Shown piece by piece: positions 12,484-23,952 of a stretch of DNA of 26,410 nucleotides. Both the position numbers and the translations under genes were made by a program. Each line of letters begins with the position of its first letter. Positions within the stretch are counted from its first letter, which is position 1. The notes under the pieces are model-generated. The model was not told the origin of the DNA and searched no databases. It was given only the letters and a program-made list of their open reading frames with translations. Source of the stretch: a virus; the IMG/VR virus record IMGVR_UViG_3300034012_000735, positions 1 through 26,410 of that record. The stretch is one strand, 5' to 3'.

Positions 12484-15400
12484 ATGCCTGTCTATGAATA
12501 CCAAGGGCAGCATTATGATCTTGCTGAAACTGATCCGTCCGCGGCTAAAGCAAAGATCCTTGCTTACCTAGCAAAGCAACAGCCACCATCCAAAGAGCGT
12601 ACCTACGGCGAGGCGTTACAAGACATTGGCGCTGGGGTTGTCGGTGGAATCGGTTCGCTCGTCCAACTCCCAGGCCAGTTATATGGCCTTGCTACGGGGG
12701 ATATGAGACGTACCGGAGCGTTAGGTGTTGGAAAAGATATTGAAGAATATGCCGAGTCTTTGAAGTCGGCAGGGCTAAAAGCTAGAGAAGAAGCAAGACG
12801 TAAAGCGATTGAAGAAGCCACTGCTAAGGAAGGACAGTTTGGTGCGTTTAAGTCTGCTTTCTCGGAGACAGTCAAAGACCCAGGATTACTGTTAACGTTT
12901 CTTGCAGAACAGGCTCCTCAGTTGCTAGTCCCCTTCGGGGCGGCAAAGATCGCCAAGGGTGCGACAGTCGCTCGAGGCGCGGGTGAAGCCGCAGCAGCAC
13001 AGGCTGGTGTTCGTGGTGCGATTGGAGCCGCGGGTGTTCAGCAAGGCGCAGATGTTGGCGCAGGTGCTTACGAGAATATCTACAACGAACTTAAGTCCAA
13101 AGGCGCAACAGATACAGAGGCGGCTCAAGGTGCGTTGAATCTTGCCCGAGCAGCAGGCGCATCAGGTGCAATCATTTCTGTATTGGCTCAACGACTTCCT
13201 GGTGCGAGGGCTTTAGAAGAAACATTCGCAGGTGTGCCGAGCGTCGCAGGTAGGGCCGGTCGTGTTGCTCGAGGCGCGGCAGGTGAAGGTGTTAGTGAAG
13301 TCGGCGAAGAAGTGGGTGGCCGATTCACGCAGAACCTTGCAATGCGCGAGGTCAAGCCTGAGCAGTCCTTGACTGAAGGTCTAGGTGAAACCGCAGGCAT
13401 GGCCGCTATTGGCGGTGTTGGACTTGGTGGTATTTCAGGTCTAGCTAGAAGGCCTGCTCCACAGGAACCGGCTCCTCCCGCTACAGAGGAACAGCTTCCA
13501 CCCGTAGAACCGACCGCTACACAACAACGGATTGAAGCAATGACCGGTGTTGGAAGGCAACCAGGGGTTGGTATTGAAGGTTTACTCTCAGCACAAGAAG
13601 CTGCCGCGCAAGAAGAAGAGCGTAGACCGCTTCGTCCTGGAGAGGGAAGGGCTAAGTTGCCGGAGTTTGAGCGTGGCGTTGCGTCGTTACTAAGACCGGG
13701 AGAAACCCGCGTCGAAGATATGCCTGAGTTCCAACAGCCGACAAGCAAGTTTGGCTTGCGTCCTGGCGAAACAAAAGTAGATAGGATGCCTGAGTTTGAA
13801 AAGCCTGCTACGGCTGAGGCGCAGCAGATACAAGAAGACATTGCCGCTCGGGAAAAGATCGCAAGAGACGCTGAACGTAAACGTGTAAGAGAAGTGCAGG
13901 CTATTCCTGGCGAAGCAAGAGCGGCTAGCGAAGAAATGTTAGACATCATTAGGCAATTACAACTTGCCAACTTGCCTAACACGCCGAACCCTCTTACGAC
14001 AGAACAACGAGAGTATCTGAAGAATCGTTTGATTGAACTTCAGAAACAAGCTAAACCGCAACCGCGGGTAGGACCAGAGACTCGACCAGAAGTACAAGAG
14101 CGAGGACCGTTAGCACAACAACTTCCAACCGCATCTAGCCCTGAAGCCATAGCAGCAAGACAGGCGGAGATTGATCGTCGTCGTCAAGAAGCTGGACTTC
14201 CTACGGCAGAACAGCAACGAGCTGGCATCACCGAAGTTGAAAAGCCAAAGATCGGAAAGTCTCCGATTCCTAAGCTTGTCGATCCGAGACCGCTAACAGA
14301 ACAGCAAGCTAACGCACGGCTTGGTGTACTGAGAGACATGCTTCAGATTGAGGGCGGAGATCCTAATAGTCTTGGCATCGTTCCTCATCCAACGGTTCAG
14401 GGTAAGTTTGCTATCAAGTCTTTTGACTTACCATTTAAGTTATCCACGGAACAACAGGCTACGGCATTTGGTACGCCTGAGAAACCTGTTGTGATTGATC
14501 CGGTCGAGGCTTACGTCAACATCGCTAGACAAACAAACACACCGGCATCACAAAGATTTGTAAAGGATTGGGAAGCAGGTCGTATCACACGAGAAGATGT
14601 CCAGCGTGCGTTACAGACTGAGCGTCAAGTACTACAGCTTCCTCCCCTGACATTTCTTGGTTCTCCTCCCGCAAAGATATCTCAACAACCTATTGCCGGT
14701 CCTACGCTTCAAGGCGTTCGTGATGTATTTGATCGCCCAGTTACAAATATCGCGAGACCACCCGCAAAGCCGTATGACTTACCACCTCCGGTACAGCAAT
14801 TAGGCGTAACAACATGGTCTGTTGAACCAGGGCAAGTAGAGACTACTAGCAATATAGAACTTCCATCTCTTGGCTTTTTAAATAACCAAAGCGTTGACCC
14901 GGTTGAGTATTACGTCCGTATGCTTACAGAGATGGCGGCAGTAGAGCCAACCACACAGGAAGAACGCAATCAACAAGCAAAGATCAAAGCGTTTCTTGAG
15001 GCGTACAACCAAAACAAAATACCTCGAGAGTTTATTGAAAAGGCTTTGAGAAAGCAGGGAGGTACGACGACCGCCCAGCCTCCGACGCAACAACCTCCTG
15101 CCGAACAGCCGCCTACTGAACAACCACCGAGCGAAGAACAGCCCATATCATTTGCTGAGTTTAAATTGCGTATGCCTGTTGCTAGGCAAAACGCAGAAGT
15201 CTTGGCGGCAAACAATCAAGGCAATATTCAGAAGCTTGGTGAAGCGTTAGCAAAGAGTTCTAACCCAGCTATTGCCAAGGTTGGTGAGTTAACCAAACTT
15301 ATCGTTGGCAAGGTAACGTTAAAGAAACCAACGAAGTTTCCTGCATGGAAAGGTGGAGAGTACGTCTACAACACCGATTCCATTCAAATGAATAAAACTA

Positions 15401-18400
15401 GCGCAGGAAGCGAACACGTTAACGCGCATGAACTTGTTCATGGGCTTATTTCTAAATCGCAAAGATTCCCCGGCCCAAGACAACTTCGTTATGCAAATGA
15501 TATTAAAACACTTTACGAACATGTAAAGAAAGAACTTGCTAAAAAAGGCATGGGAATCGGCCCTAAATATAAAGTGCAAGTTTACGGTTTGACCAATGAA
15601 CGTGAGTTCACTGCTGAAGCGATGACTAATCCAGAGTTTCAGTACATGCTTATGCAGATTCCTTACAAGGGTAAGAAGTCTGCGTGGTCACAATTTGTTC
15701 AAGTGGTTGCTAATCTGTTAGGCATTAAAGATACCAACGCTTTGACAGAAGTTATGTCGTTAGTGGAGAAGCTAGCAAAGGTTGGCCGTCCAACAACGAT
15801 GAAGCGAGACTCTCAACTTGTTGATGAATCGTTAAGCTTAGAACAAGTAAAGCAAACAGCCCAGCAAGCTATGCAAAAACGCGAGCCACTCAGACTCGCA
15901 CCGCAGATCTCTGAGCAAACCGCACAACAGTTACAGGCTACCTTCGCTCCCGAGAATAAGACCATCATCGATAAGATCGAAGGTCTTAAGGATCGGTTCT
16001 GGCAGCGTATCGCTCAGGGTATGGCCGATCAGTTCAGATCGATTAAAGAGTATGACGAGAAGGCTTATATGCAAGCCCGTCTGTCTAAGTCTGTTGACGG
16101 TGGACTCGAGGGGCTACTGTTCTACGGCGAAGTCTTTAACGATGACGGCGCATTGAATCTTAGAAGAGACGGTAAAGGTCTTATAAAAGCACTAGAACCC
16201 GTTGGTGCTGAAGTTGATAACTTCATGATCTGGATTGCGCTTAACCGCGAAGCAAACCTCCGAGGAGCAGGAAGGAACCCATCCATTCCTGATGCGTTGC
16301 TTGCTCAGAAAGATACGTTATCAAGTGGGACATTGAACGGACAACCAAGGCTACAGGTCTATCAGCGTGTACTTCAAGACATGAATAAGTTGAATCGTTC
16401 AGTCCTGAAGATTGCATTAGACACAGGGCTGATCGATCAACAGGGATTTGAGAACTTCTCAAACGACATCTATTACGTGCCGTTCTACAAGGAGATGGAA
16501 GGCAAAGACATTGACGCTCCTTCCACGGCGTCAGGCCTTACAAGTCAGTACTTCTCGAAGCAGCTCAAAGGTGGTGAGCGTCCATTCGGTGATCTAGTAG
16601 AGAACACCTTACGAAATTGGAATCACATCCTGTCGGCAGCGATGAAGAACCAAGCCGCGGTATCGACATTACAAGCCGCCCAAAATGTCGTACTAGGTGA
16701 TACACCTGTGGTCGAGCCGACCAATGAGAAGACCGGATCTGCCAAGGTAATGGTCAATGGACAACCGCAGTACTTCAAAGTCAATGATCCATTACTGTTA
16801 GATGCCATCTCTGCGATTGGATACTTAGGTCCAAAGTCTAAGTTCCTTGATGTGGCTAGAGGCTTTAAGAATATCCTACAGTTTGGCGTGACTTTATCCC
16901 CGGCGTTTAAGGTAAACAACTTGATCCGCGACTCGGTGTCTGCGATGGCGGTGACCGAACTAAATAAGAACCCGATTGCCAACGTTCTTAACGGTATCTC
17001 GATCTTTAACAAGGACGATCCTACGTACATATCGGCACTCGCTGGCGGGGCTATCTTTAACTTCGGCACGGCGTATGAAGGTGACCAATCCAAACTTATC
17101 AAACGATTGATTGAGAAAGGCGTTGATCGCGATACCATTTTAGATACCGAGTCAAGAATTAAAAAGGGGTTGCGTACCGCTTGGGATAAATATCAAGAGT
17201 GGGGTAACGCTTCTGAATCGGCTAACAGACTTGCGCTATATCAGCAGCTTAAAGATCAAGGGATGAGCCACCTCGAGGCTACCTATAAAGCTAGAGATCT
17301 GTTGGACTTCTCGATGCAAGGATCGTGGCCTGCGTTCCGATTGGTTACGCAAGTTGTACCGTTTATGAATGCGCGTATTCAAGGTCTTTATAAACTCGGA
17401 AGAGACGGTGTCATTCCTACGTCGCGGGTGTTGTACAACGTGGCGACAGGACAAGAGATCGAAGGGTCTGATAAGCAGAAGGCTTTAGCGTTTAGCATCG
17501 TTACCGGCGCTGTGACAATGGCGTCCATGATGTTGTACCTCGCATTCAAGGATGACGAGGAATACAAGAAACGTGACGAGTGGGATCGTGATAATTTCTG
17601 GTGGTTCAAGTTGCCAGGAATGGAGGTTGCGCTTCGTGTGCCAAAGCCCTTTGAGATCGGTGCGTTTGGTACGTTGACCGAGCGTGTCTTAGAACAAGTC
17701 TTTGATGAAGGCGCAGAAGGAAAACAATTCACATCGTCCATAGCAAGGATGCTTGGCGATACGTTTGCCTTGAATCCAACGCCGCAGATATTCAAGCCAC
17801 TCTTAGATTTGTACGCTAACAAGGATTCCTTTACCGGCGCGCCGATTGAAACCGCGGGTCTCGAGCGTTTATCCAAACAAGAGCGGACGTTGGATACCAC
17901 AAGCGAACTAGCCAAAGCACTCGGTGGTTTGTCGTCCATTCTTCCAGAGAAGTTTGAGCTGTCTCCCGTTCAGGTTGACTATGCCATCAAGGGATACTTT
18001 GGCTGGCTAGGTGGAGCGGCATCAACCATATCGACTTATGCGGTTATGCCGTTTAAGGAAGGTGAGTATCCTGATGCGAAGTGGATTGATCGTGCAAGCT
18101 TAGGTTTGGCAAAAGATCTACCGGCTAATCAGGCTAAGTACGTGACATCGTTTTATGAGAACGCCAAAGAGATCAATCAGGCCTTTGCGGATATGCGGCA
18201 TTACGCTGAGGTTGGTGATGCGGCTAAGGTCGAGGAGATCATCTCTGAGAGGGGAGACAAGATCGCCTTGGCTAAGTTCTATGACAAGACATCAAAGAAC
18301 ATGTCTGAGATTAGAAAACAAATCCGCGTCATCATGGCGGATCCCACGATGAGCGGAGCGGAGAAGCGTGAAGAGATTGACCGAATGAAGTTGATTATTT

Positions 18401-18447
18401 CTGACTTAGCTCAACAGGCAGAAGAAATCAGGAAGTCATCCAAGTAA
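12484..18447 (+). CDS. Giant polyvalent phage protein with zincin-like HExxH domain and LPD38-like region
   Basis: A 1987-residue protein starting at ATG 12484 behind GAGGTGAG. It opens with 'MPVYEYQGQHYDLAETDPSA', then Gly/Ala-rich hydrophobic helices (about 40-330) that could insert in a membrane. A linker carries three 'LRPGE....PEF' repeats (384-438), and low-complexity Pro/Gln linkers follow. Residues about 920-1090 form a metallopeptidase-like domain: HELVHG puts zinc ligands at His982 and His986 with catalytic Glu983, and Glu1041 or Glu1045 (NEREFTAEAM) could be the third ligand. The C-terminal half includes 'LSPAFKVNNLIRDSVSA' and 'ESANRLALYQQL', resembling large polyvalent protein-associated domain 38. 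Known polyvalent proteins enter the host with phage DNA and carry effector enzymes. The family calls come from memory. Confidence 0.75.
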   Translation: MPVYEYQGQHYDLAETDPSAAKAKILAYLAKQQPPSKERTYGEALQDIGAGVVGGIGSLVQLPGQLYGLATGDMRRTGALGVGKDIEEYAESLKSAGLKAREEARRKAIEEATAKEGQFGAFKSAFSETVKDPGLLLTFLAEQAPQLLVPFGAAKIAKGATVARGAGEAAAAQAGVRGAIGAAGVQQGADVGAGAYENIYNELKSKGATDTEAAQGALNLARAAGASGAIISVLAQRLPGARALEETFAGVPSVAGRAGRVARGAAGEGVSEVGEEVGGRFTQNLAMREVKPEQSLTEGLGETAGMAAIGGVGLGGISGLARRPAPQEPAPPATEEQLPPVEPTATQQRIEAMTGVGRQPGVGIEGLLSAQEAAAQEEERRPLRPGEGRAKLPEFERGVASLLRPGETRVEDMPEFQQPTSKFGLRPGETKVDRMPEFEKPATAEAQQIQEDIAAREKIARDAERKRVREVQAIPGEARAASEEMLDIIRQLQLANLPNTPNPLTTEQREYLKNRLIELQKQAKPQPRVGPETRPEVQERGPLAQQLPTASSPEAIAARQAEIDRRRQEAGLPTAEQQRAGITEVEKPKIGKSPIPKLVDPRPLTEQQANARLGVLRDMLQIEGGDPNSLGIVPHPTVQGKFAIKSFDLPFKLSTEQQATAFGTPEKPVVIDPVEAYVNIARQTNTPASQRFVKDWEAGRITREDVQRALQTERQVLQLPPLTFLGSPPAKISQQPIAGPTLQGVRDVFDRPVTNIARPPAKPYDLPPPVQQLGVTTWSVEPGQVETTSNIELPSLGFLNNQSVDPVEYYVRMLTEMAAVEPTTQEERNQQAKIKAFLEAYNQNKIPREFIEKALRKQGGTTTAQPPTQQPPAEQPPTEQPPSEEQPISFAEFKLRMPVARQNAEVLAANNQGNIQKLGEALAKSSNPAIAKVGELTKLIVGKVTLKKPTKFPAWKGGEYVYNTDSIQMNKTSAGSEHVNAHELVHGLISKSQRFPGPRQLRYANDIKTLYEHVKKELAKKGMGIGPKYKVQVYGLTNEREFTAEAMTNPEFQYMLMQIPYKGKKSAWSQFVQVVANLLGIKDTNALTEVMSLVEKLAKVGRPTTMKRDSQLVDESLSLEQVKQTAQQAMQKREPLRLAPQISEQTAQQLQATFAPENKTIIDKIEGLKDRFWQRIAQGMADQFRSIKEYDEKAYMQARLSKSVDGGLEGLLFYGEVFNDDGALNLRRDGKGLIKALEPVGAEVDNFMIWIALNREANLRGAGRNPSIPDALLAQKDTLSSGTLNGQPRLQVYQRVLQDMNKLNRSVLKIALDTGLIDQQGFENFSNDIYYVPFYKEMEGKDIDAPSTASGLTSQYFSKQLKGGERPFGDLVENTLRNWNHILSAAMKNQAAVSTLQAAQNVVLGDTPVVEPTNEKTGSAKVMVNGQPQYFKVNDPLLLDAISAIGYLGPKSKFLDVARGFKNILQFGVTLSPAFKVNNLIRDSVSAMAVTELNKNPIANVLNGISIFNKDDPTYISALAGGAIFNFGTAYEGDQSKLIKRLIEKGVDRDTILDTESRIKKGLRTAWDKYQEWGNASESANRLALYQQLKDQGMSHLEATYKARDLLDFSMQGSWPAFRLVTQVVPFMNARIQGLYKLGRDGVIPTSRVLYNVATGQEIEGSDKQKALAFSIVTGAVTMASMMLYLAFKDDEEYKKRDEWDRDNFWWFKLPGMEVALRVPKPFEIGAFGTLTERVLEQVFDEGAEGKQFTSSIARMLGDTFALNPTPQIFKPLLDLYANKDSFTGAPIETAGLERLSKQERTLDTTSELAKALGGLSSILPEKFELSPVQVDYAIKGYFGWLGGAASTISTYAVMPFKEGEYPDAKWIDRASLGLAKDLPANQAKYVTSFYENAKEINQAFADMRHYAEVGDAAKVEEIISERGDKIALAKFYDKTSKNMSEIRKQIRVIMADPTMSGAEKREEIDRMKLIISDLAQQAEEIRKSSK

Positions 18448-22956: not shown

Positions 22957-23244
22957 ATGCGTCGCGCAGCAAGAGTTGATGCAAATCAAGGACTTATCGT
23001 TCAGGCTCTTCGGGCCTGCGGGGCGACTGTCCGAGTCATTTCCCAGGGGGATGGAATACCAGATCTACTCGTTGGCTACCGCGGCCATACGATTTTGATG
23101 GAAGTGAAGGACGGGGATAAGACGCCGTCGCAGCGCAAGCTCACCGAGGCGGAACAAAACTTCTTCGATACGTGGACCGGTGGGAAATTATTGATTGTGA
23201 ACAGTGTCGATGAGGCGCTTGCTGTACTGAAGGAATGCAGATAG
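22957..23244 (+). CDS. Small VRR-NUC-like PD-(D/E)XK nuclease
   Basis: The frame is open from 22852, but the start is placed at ATG 22957, four bases after GGAG; the upstream stretch crosses the divergent promoter region and does not look like protein. The 95-residue product begins MRRAARVDANQGLIVQALRA and has the compact nuclease core 'GDGIPDLLVGYRGHTILMEV' followed by KDG, with PD and ExK residues (Asp in IPD, Glu and Lys in MEVKDG), then 'TEAEQNFFDTWTGGKLLIV'. This matches small phage VRR-NUC proteins, thought to cut branched or structured DNA. It is the only protein gene of its island on the + strand and is followed by a strong terminator and the structured RNA. Confidence 0.85.
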   Translation: MRRAARVDANQGLIVQALRACGATVRVISQGDGIPDLLVGYRGHTILMEVKDGDKTPSQRKLTEAEQNFFDTWTGGKLLIVNSVDEALAVLKECR

Positions 23245-23274
23245 GATGAGGGCTGTAGTCCATGTTGTCTCCTC

Positions 23275-23290
23275 TGTTGGCTTCCCAACA
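23275..23290 (+). other. Short hairpin before the terminator
   Basis: A 6-bp stem with a 4-base loop: tgttgg (23275-23280), cttc, ccaaca (23285-23290), followed by TTT. It lies 30 bases after the nuclease stop and just before the main terminator. It may add to termination or to 3'-end stability. Confidence 0.45.
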
Positions 23291-23293
23291 TTT

Positions 23294-23320
23294 GCCCCTT
23301 GCAATAAGGGGCATTTTTTT
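23294..23320 (+). terminator. Strong intrinsic terminator of the VRR-NUC gene
   Basis: A 7-bp G/C-rich stem, gcccctt (23294-23300) and aaggggc (23306-23312), with a 5-base loop gcaat and a run of seven T at 23314-23320. The T tract exists only on the + strand, so it acts on rightward transcripts. It insulates the nuclease gene from the RNA that starts right after it. Confidence 0.88.
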
Positions 23321-23328
23321 GGTATATT
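23299..23328 (+). promoter_or_regulatory. Rightward promoter of the structured RNA, embedded in the terminator
   Basis: TTGCAA (23299-23304) lies 18 bases before TATATT (23323-23328). The -35 is inside the terminator's loop and stem, and the T run fills the spacer. The predicted start at about 23334-23336 coincides with the first base of the RNA's closing stem (23336, or 23333 with the bulged extension). That agreement supports the call. Confidence 0.6.
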
Positions 23329-23332
23329 CTGC

Positions 23333-23755
23333 GCCGTCGGATTGGCACTCCGGTGAAGCGAACGTAGGAACAAACCCCAGATGTTTTAGGTTGGGGCGTT
23401 GTAGATGATGCGCGTTTTCCCTTCGGGGGAAATCCTACATTCGCAAACGCCTGAGTCTGCCTCCGCCAGAGGTAACGCTCCAACCTAAGTCTTCTGGGGT
23501 TTTGCTTTTGGTGCCGACCGGACTCCATCCGATAGCAAGGTCTAAACCGGACGCGTGGAAGAATAGGTAGTCGGTATGCCAGGGTAACCTGAGCCGGTGC
23601 AAATCCGCCAATCCGACAGGCTCGCCGTAGTCCCAAGCCTGGGGGTGTAGGAGATAACCCGTCCTACACATGGGGCTTCCCGTAAGGGGGTGATGAAGAT
23701 CACCGAAGGCATCCTCCCTTTACCCGTATGGGGTAGGGGGAGCCTTTGGGTGATA
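23333..23755 (+). ncRNA. Candidate large structured non-coding RNA of unknown family
   Basis: No credible gene covers this stretch; the only long frame is an Arg-rich antisense one. Read on the + strand, a closing stem pairs 23336-23346 with 23607-23617 (11 of 11), extended by 23333-23335 with 23619-23621 past a bulged A. Inside, 23372-23381 pairs with 23493-23502 (10 bp) and 23385-23394 with 23480-23489 (10 bp, one G-U), across a 3x3 internal loop. Further helices are 23395-23400 with 23446-23451, a UUCG-capped hairpin at 23415-23432, 23460-23463 with 23469-23472, and a GUAA-capped hairpin at 23580-23591. Positions 23358-23368 match 23434-23444 at 10 of 11, a possible pseudoknot. The 3' domain (23635-23755) has four more tiled hairpins, one GUAA-capped. 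The 3' end is uncertain. It matches no RNA family I can recall. Confidence 0.7.
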
Positions 23756-23760
23756 AATAG

Positions 23761-23952
23761 CTAAGATTGGTTTTTGCCTGCGTTGCGATCCATGTTTTCT
23801 TTTAGTTCTTTCAGGATCGATTCGGCCAAAGACTTTATGGCGGCGGACTTTAGGAGTAACAACTTGGCCTGTCCCGCTGCGCGTTCTGCCTCCTCCATCA
23901 GGGTTTCTACGCGGAGCTGGAGGACGACCCGAGGGTCAATGTTTATCTTCAT
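23761..23952 (-). CDS. Hypothetical small helical protein, last gene of the early operon
   Basis: A 63-residue protein from ATG 23952 with AGGAA close upstream and a 17-base overlap with the previous gene. After a short strand (MKINIDPRVVLQLRV) it is one long Ala/Glu/Lys/Leu helix, probably coiled coil, with a polar tail. The strand-helix start vaguely recalls a ribbon-helix-helix protein, but the second helix pattern is not convincing. No intrinsic terminator follows on the - strand, so transcripts could run antisense through the structured RNA. Confidence 0.6.
   Translation of the reverse strand: MKINIDPRVVLQLRVETLMEEAERAAGQAKLLLLKSAAIKSLAESILKELKENMDRNAGKNQS

What the first reader, a model, noticed from the sequence alone, without database searches (positions are those of the whole stretch)
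23333..23755. Large structured phage RNA behind a nuclease gene, no recognised family
About 420 bases lack a gene and show nested long-range complementarity: an 11-14 bp closing stem joining bases 270 apart, a 20-bp two-part stem, and UUCG and two GUAA tetraloops. The tetraloops are of the stable type only on the + strand; the reverse complements would be CGAA and UUAC. A promoter places the 5' end at the first base of the closing stem. Structure, strand and start point agree independently. Known large phage-associated RNAs (GOLLD, ROOL, HEARO, raiA) are the natural comparison; I do not recognise any of them here. Possible roles include a ribozyme, a protein-binding scaffold, a packaging or nuclease partner RNA, or a structured replication origin.
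Basis: partly seen in the sequence, partly recalled or inferred. Interest (0 to 1): 0.88.

Follow-up and report, generated by a model that had tools for sequence, protein, structure and literature searches.

The report
Widespread modular pseudoknotted phage RNA family
Between two phage genes lies a roughly 420-base RNA with its own promoter; relatives in hundreds of uncultured phage contigs keep its shape while changing its letters, so it is a real, so far undescribed phage RNA whose job is still unknown.

Summary
The region 23336-23755 encodes one RNA with two domains. The 3' "body" (23518-23755) holds a second pseudoknot. Relatives occur in over 300 IMG/VR contigs. In a second head class (54 distinct sequences) the pseudoknot helix is Watson-Crick in 378 of 378 cells, with up to four pair types per position. 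Heads and bodies are reshuffled between phages. No Rfam 15 family matches; nothing was found in named phages or prokaryote genomes with the queries used. The nuclease is not an obligate partner (7 of 42 RNA-bearing contigs carry it). A cis-leader role is largely refuted: downstream genes vary, are absent, or run the other way. Best explanation: a free-standing, trans-acting early phage RNA with a common head and swappable bodies. The main rival is an RNA linked to the replication origin, because many copies lie close to the GC-skew minimum. No transcript or function has been shown.

The parts
22957..23244 (+). upstream small PD-(D/E)XK / VRR-NUC-like endonuclease (neighbour, not an obligate partner)
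   Evidence: PHROG 93 endonuclease E=1e-7, no Pfam hit; IPDLL...MEVKDG motif; homologues annotated endonuclease; 75 viral relatives; in 7 of 42 RNA-bearing contigs
23294..23320 (+). intrinsic terminator of the nuclease gene (GCCCCTT/AAGGGGC + T7), overlapping the -35 box of the RNA promoter
   Evidence: sequence; weak hit of this stretch to Betaproteobacteria_toxic_sRNA, 26 bits against a cut-off of 50
23299..23328 (+). sigma70-type promoter: TTGCAA (23299-23304), 18 nt, TATATT (23323-23328)
   Evidence: conserved in place in class A and B relatives, far above shuffles
23336..23354 (+). P1a hairpin GTCGGA-TTGGCAC-TCCGGT, first bases of the RNA; loop holds the TGGC(A) motif
   Evidence: stem letters covary in relatives, TGGCA loop conserved
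23358..23369 (+). P2 5' strand GCGAACGTAGGA (pseudoknot)
   Evidence: pairs 11 of 12 with 23433-23444; in 15 distinct class-A sequences own helix score 10.0 vs 6.5 for swapped partners, 0 of 10000 permutations
23373..23400 (+).
   Evidence: different letters, same pairing in A-like heads such as L285, L299, L301 (read by eye)
23414..23432 (+). window-specific hairpin with UUCG loop
   Evidence: fold; not kept in relatives
23433..23444 (+). P2 3' strand TCCTACATTCGC (pseudoknot)
23460..23472 (+). P5 hairpin CCTC-CGCCA-GAGG, loop GCCA complementary to the P1a loop TGGC (possible kissing pair)
   Evidence: loop GCC(A) and P1a loop GGC conserved in class A; kissing is inferred by eye, not tested
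23474..23503 (+). P3 3' strand
23500..23511 (+). conserved U-rich run after P3 (TTTTGCTTTTGG; mostly five or more T in class B, terminator-like)
23514..23518 (+). CCGAC strand able to pair with the 5' end (P1), mutually exclusive with P1a
   Evidence: class B: own 6.81 vs 5.84 permuted, 0 of 10000; in class A seen by eye only
23518..23755 (+). body domain, type II
   Evidence: aligned in 13 phages, including L122, L129, L167 and L182, which carry the other head class
23617..23641 (+). body pseudoknot helix PKa: CAGGCT 23617-23622 with AGCCTG 23636-23641
   Evidence: 0 of 10000 permutations
23629..23677 (+). body pseudoknot helix PKb: AGTCCCA 23629-23635 with TGGGGCT 23671-23677, crossing PKa
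   Evidence: 1 of 10000 permutations; C-to-T / G-to-A compensating change against sister L052
23679..23690 (+). hairpin CCC-GTAA-GGG
   Evidence: GCAA in L052/L002
23714..23753 (+). 3' hairpin with invariant GGGGTAGGGGG and CTTTGGGTGA end

Best explanation
The segment is the gene of a free-standing, trans-acting phage RNA of about 420 nt (longer in some relatives), made by the host sigma70 RNA polymerase from its own promoter, usually in the early/replication region. Shown by comparison: the RNA begins with a hairpin and folds a head by a pseudoknot (class B: 7 nt of the hairpin loop pair with a 7-nt bulge of a long stem; class A, here: a junction strand pairs with an internal strand). A U-rich run follows, then a body with a second pseudoknot, and heads and bodies are swapped between phages. 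Inferred: the head is a common docking module for one host or phage factor, probably a protein, and the interchangeable bodies carry the variable function, most plausibly binding or decoying host components during takeover or counter-defence. Confidence that it is a genuine RNA family not in Rfam is about 0.95; the figure given here is for the trans-acting scaffold/decoy mechanism.
For: Pseudoknot P2 in 54 class-B heads: 378/378 cells standard pairs, covariation score 0.762 vs 0.177 shuffled and at most 0.149 slid; whole head 97.5% paired vs 84.5% shuffled and 33-46% slid. Class A P2 and body pseudoknot pass permutation tests. Promoter at a fixed distance from the first helix. No fixed neighbour, orientation or protein partner: downstream gene in the opposite direction in 8 of 27 mapped contigs, including this window; nuclease in 7 of 42; most widespread protein cluster in 15 of 27 records. 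Head-body reshuffling: A+II 14, A+I 4, A+III 2, B+I 33, B+IV 14, B+II 9, B+III 9; bodies collected without regard to head carry an A- or B-like head in 88 of 158 cases vs 22 of 430 random stretches. One copy per locus.
Against: No transcript, binding partner or phenotype is known. The scaffold/decoy step rests on analogy and on the lack of a cis target. The U-run after P3 could end many transcripts at the head. Many copies lie near the GC-skew minimum, which a purely trans-acting RNA does not need. In 16 of 27 mapped contigs both flanking genes run with the RNA, so some read-through into genes is likely.
Confidence: 0.5

Rival explanations
1. Origin-linked RNA: the transcript stays on, or returns to, the DNA as a primer/R-loop for leading-strand replication, like ColE1 RNA II, and the alternative pairing of the 5' strand (P1a/P2 versus P1) is its control.
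For: Median distance to the cumulative GC-skew minimum is 0.042 of contig length (0.25 at random); 14 of 27 within 0.05, and where close the RNA mostly points away from the minimum. Neighbours include a replication-initiation protein (PHROG 9474/270), helicase and primase (names by sequence reading). Mutually exclusive pairing of the 5' strand has permutation support in class B.
Against: Replication/recombination genes next to it are as close to the minimum (0.03-0.06), so proximity may only reflect the module. 11 of 27 copies, this window included, are more than 0.1 away (many contigs are partial). Some copies lie between structural genes. The 3' G-run is absent from body I, and no AT-rich element was sought.
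Confidence: 0.2
2. Transcription-control leader: the head acts on the polymerase that just made it (put-like antitermination, or attenuation at the P3/U-run) to control the early operon.
For: The head lies at the extreme 5' end. P3 plus a T run in class B looks like an intrinsic terminator. The downstream neighbour is codirectional in 19 of 27 contigs.
Against: The downstream gene is opposite in 8 of 27, including here. A conserved 240-nt body after the U-run would have no role. Class A has only a weak U-run. ORFs after body I are 0-16 aa in many copies.
Confidence: 0.13
3. Ribozyme or self-processing RNA.
For: Compact pseudoknots; class-B P2 is a strict 7 bp, as P1 is in HDV-like ribozymes (own knowledge).
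Against: P2 sits in the loop of its own hairpin, unlike HDV P1. No Rfam ribozyme or intron hit at permissive thresholds. No invariant catalytic core was recognised.
Confidence: 0.06
4. Cis-regulatory leader of one downstream gene (riboswitch-like).
For: Body I often ends at GGRGAACCTATG, and in several copies that ATG opens the replication gene.
Against: The same end is kept when the ORF is 0-16 aa; downstream genes differ; here the next gene is on the other strand.
Confidence: 0.03
5. RNA component of the adjacent nuclease (guide or cofactor).
For: The R1 head model hits the + strand downstream of the nuclease in 39 of the 50 loci L002-L051 at E < 0.002, and L002-L005 and L052 carry class A heads.
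Against: Only 7 of 42 RNA-bearing contigs carry the nuclease; the three named-phage nuclease loci fetched lack a convincing model match.
Confidence: 0.03

Closest known systems
GOLLD RNA
   Same: large, phage/prophage-encoded structured RNA of unknown function, with one better conserved and one variable region (PMC12286853)
   Different: no covariance-model match; GOLLD keeps its 3' region and varies its 5' region, here a head topology is kept and 3' bodies are swapped; no tRNA in the window
ROOL RNA
   Same: large multi-pseudoknot phage RNA, no known protein partner, function unknown (PMC12286853)
   Different: no covariance-model match; no modular head/body exchange is described in the passages read
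HEARO/OMEGA and raiA RNAs
   Different: no covariance-model match
ColE1 RNA II (replication primer)
   Same: own promoter, pseudoknot, alternative pairings of one strand, lies at an origin (own knowledge)
   Different: no sequence relation; no RNA-DNA hybrid or RNase H step shown; location not constant
HK022 put antiterminator RNA
   Same: phage RNA folding at the 5' end of a transcript (own knowledge)
   Different: put is about 70 nt with simple hairpins and acts in cis; this is about 420 nt and often has no codirectional operon

Membership tests
GOLLD / ROOL / HEARO / raiA / OLE and all other Rfam 15 families | match to the family's covariance model | tested here: not met
   window: 0 gathering hits; permissive E<=10 on window, L029, L111, L133: only weak hits far below cut-offs; 39 loci of relatives: tRNA only
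GOLLD | universally conserved 3' region, less conserved 5' region | tested here: not met
   at least four 3' body types behind two head classes
GOLLD / ROOL | often near tRNA islands | tested here: not met
   no tRNA in the window; tRNAs only in L006, L010, L122 of the 39 loci scanned
GOLLD / ROOL | homo-oligomeric RNA cage | not testable with these tools
   needs cryo-EM or native gels
HDV-like ribozyme | 7-bp P1 starting at the cleavage site, P1.1 and active-site C in J4/2 | tested here: inconclusive
   strict 7-bp helix present in class B, but inside a hairpin loop; no catalytic core recognised; no model hit
Group I intron | P3-P7 pseudoknot separated by P4-P6, splice sites in a gene | tested here: not met
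   only about 6 nt between PKa and PKb 5' strands, so no P4-P6; no interrupted gene seen; no Rfam hit
ColE1-type replication primer | persistent RNA-DNA hybrid cleaved at the origin | not testable with these tools
   only position relative to GC skew could be tested: near the minimum in 14 of 27
Cis-regulatory leader | constant, codirectional downstream gene | tested here: not met

The most novel reading that the evidence does not exclude
A widespread class of phage RNA machines built from a standard head plus exchangeable bodies, in which the head recruits one common host or phage factor and the body sets what is targeted. Its 5' strand switches between a loop-bulge pseudoknot and a long-range closing helix, so that assembly and activity are timed with transcription.
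Probability: 0.3. Interest if true: 0.92.

Novelty: categorically new. Interest (0 to 1): 0.82.

Why it matters
Few large phage RNAs are known (GOLLD, ROOL), and their functions are not understood (PMC12286853). This family is present in more than 300 viral contigs, has two alternative heads and at least four body types, and is missing from Rfam 15. Its modularity gives a handle: head and body can be tested apart, and natural swaps show which part determines what. The class-B pseudoknot, 378 of 378 Watson-Crick, is a clean target for structure work. If it takes part in host takeover, counter-defence or replication, it would be a common non-protein tool of environmental phages. Caveat on the novelty label: as a general kind (large phage RNA of unknown function) it stands beside GOLLD and ROOL, and only open-access papers could be searched.

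Tried and rejected
(1) blastn of the RNA in named phages: nothing for the window, chance fragments for two relatives. (2) Genome collections: class-B pattern, 0 hits; the nuclease protein gave only Ramlibacter monticola, with coding sequence and no such RNA behind it on reading. (4) Nuclease as obligate partner: rejected. (5) A protein present in all RNA-bearing phages: none; the best cluster is in 15 of 27 records. (6) Cis leader: rejected. (7) Group I intron and known ribozymes: no Rfam hit, no core. (8) Named-phage nuclease homologues: L220 and L221 show no similar RNA; Escherichia phage vB_EcoM_APEC has a different-looking structured gap. (9) MAFFT misaligned the variable P2 and PKb strands, so those were tested by helix search with partner permutation instead. 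(10) A first regex for the body pseudoknot missed 8 of 13 sequences and was redone.

Full report
What was tested. The window is a 26,410-base IMG/VR virus record. The gap 23245-23760 lies between a small endonuclease gene on the + strand (22957-23244; PHROG endonuclease) and a small open frame on the - strand (23761-23952). The gap itself encodes no + strand protein of 60 aa or more. Its RNA folds with z = -4.67, but the reverse complement folds almost as well, so relatives were needed.

Relatives. The nuclease found 75 viral loci. Five of them carry a homologue of the RNA directly behind the nuclease. A pattern from the long stem found 35 stretches (33 real on reading) in viral contigs, called class A. 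Reading other nuclease loci showed a second sequence class with similar architecture; a pattern for it found 108 viral stretches and none in genome contigs. None of the RNA queries matched named phages beyond chance fragments.

Head, class B. In 54 distinct sequences a 5-bp hairpin opens the RNA. The last 7 nt of its 8-nt loop pair with a 7-nt bulge in a long stem. That loop-bulge helix is a standard pair in 378 of 378 cells, all Watson-Crick, with up to four pair types at one position; shuffled 3' letters give 72%, and slid partners 19-51%. The whole head is 97.5% paired against 84.5% shuffled and 33-46% slid. Two cautions: the pattern used to collect these sequences fixes parts of the long stem P3, so its invariance is by construction, whereas P1a, P2 and P4 were not in the pattern; and the shuffles do not model phylogeny. 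A covariance model of this head (R1) finds it on the + strand downstream of most close nuclease homologues, sometimes more than a kilobase away.

Head, class A (the window). Similar parts appear in another layout: hairpin P1a with a TGGC(A) loop, a junction strand (23358-23369) pairing with an internal strand (23433-23444), the long stem P3, a hairpin with a GCCA loop, then a U-rich run. P2 has almost no conserved letters, yet it pairs in every sequence: own score 10.0 against 6.5 for swapped partners, 0 of 10,000 permutations. A-like heads (L285, L299, L301) replace the letters of P3 and P2 and keep the pairing on reading. The GGC/GCC loop-loop contact is suggested by conservation only.

Alternative pairing. 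In class B the 5' strand is also complementary to a strand just before the body (13 bp in L147, up to 17 in L175); over 43 sequences own 6.81 vs 5.84 permuted, 0 of 10,000. This is mutually exclusive with P1a/P2. It is weaker than P2 and may be a folding intermediate, a switch or a dimer contact. In class A the same is seen by eye (GTCAG with both CTGGC and CTGAC), with few independent events.

Body. The window's body aligns in 13 phages, several of which carry the other head class. It holds a second pseudoknot, 23617-23622/23636-23641 crossing 23629-23635/23671-23677: 0 and 1 of 10,000 permutations, plus a compensating change against the nearest relative. At least four body types exist, and both head classes occur with several of them. 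Starting from bodies alone, an A- or B-like head is found upstream in 88 of 158 cases against 22 of 430 random stretches. Head and body therefore look like one RNA gene with exchangeable domains; that a single transcript spans both is inferred from this linkage and the lack of an obvious gene boundary, not shown by reads.

Transcription. A sigma70-type promoter sits at a fixed place before P1a: 37 of 51 class-B sequences have a -10 box with at least 5 of 6 matches (3.5 expected), 34 have a -35 with at least 5 of 6 (1.35 expected); 10 of 14 class-A sequences have the -10 (0.43 expected). The RNA start near 23336 is thus well supported by sequence, though not by reads.

Surroundings. In 27 contigs the RNA mostly lies in the early/replication region, next to replication-initiation, helicase, primase, exonuclease or recombination genes, but some copies lie between other genes; flanking genes are codirectional on both sides in 16, and the downstream gene is opposite in 8. 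No protein cluster is in more than 15 of 27 records, and the nuclease is in 7 of 42. The RNA lies close to the cumulative GC-skew minimum (median 0.042 of length; 14 of 27 within 0.05), as do its replication neighbours. Contigs are often partial, so this is suggestive only.

What it is not. Rfam 15 gives no family for the window, for relatives at gathering thresholds, or for four representative RNAs at permissive thresholds. It is not a leader of one gene. The literature searched shows GOLLD and ROOL as the nearest kind; the search covers open-access papers only and cannot find a family by sequence.

Verdict. A genuine, widespread phage RNA family that is not in Rfam is close to certain (about 0.95). 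That it acts in trans as a scaffold or decoy is the most likely mechanism (0.5) but is inferred. An origin-linked role is the strongest rival (0.2).

Noticed in passing
L222:2840-3118 (MT664721.1, Escherichia phage vB_EcoM_APEC): An unannotated structured gap (z = -3.5) with its own terminator directly behind a homologue of the same nuclease; 5' hairpin, long stem and closing helix recall the present design, but homology is not shown. It could be a culturable test case.
   Followed up: partly
L006, L010, L028, L032, L067 behind the nuclease: Recurrent hairpin modules of the form CAACACGCATGGGG...CCCCAGCCGTGTTGG, sometimes several in a row, between the nuclease terminator and the RNA promoter or tRNAs.
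   Followed up: no
L007, L014, L025, L043, L133 between U-run and body: Optional module GGGTTAGCGCC...CACTGCTTCATGTGAGC enclosed by its own stem (GAGACTGGGA/TCCCAGTCTC).
   Followed up: no
body I relatives, e.g. L132, L209: The 3' end CACCCTTGGRGAACCTATGTCTAA is kept even where the ATG opens only a 5-aa frame, so it looks like RNA rather than coding conservation.
   Followed up: partly
window 23266-23320: The nuclease terminator with TGTCTCCT upstream scores 26 bits (E 0.006) against Betaproteobacteria_toxic_sRNA, below its cut-off; with the Ramlibacter nuclease homologue this hints at Burkholderiales hosts.
   Followed up: no
window 12484-18447: A 1987-aa protein with the LPD38 polyvalent-protein domain near its C-terminal end.
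   Followed up: no
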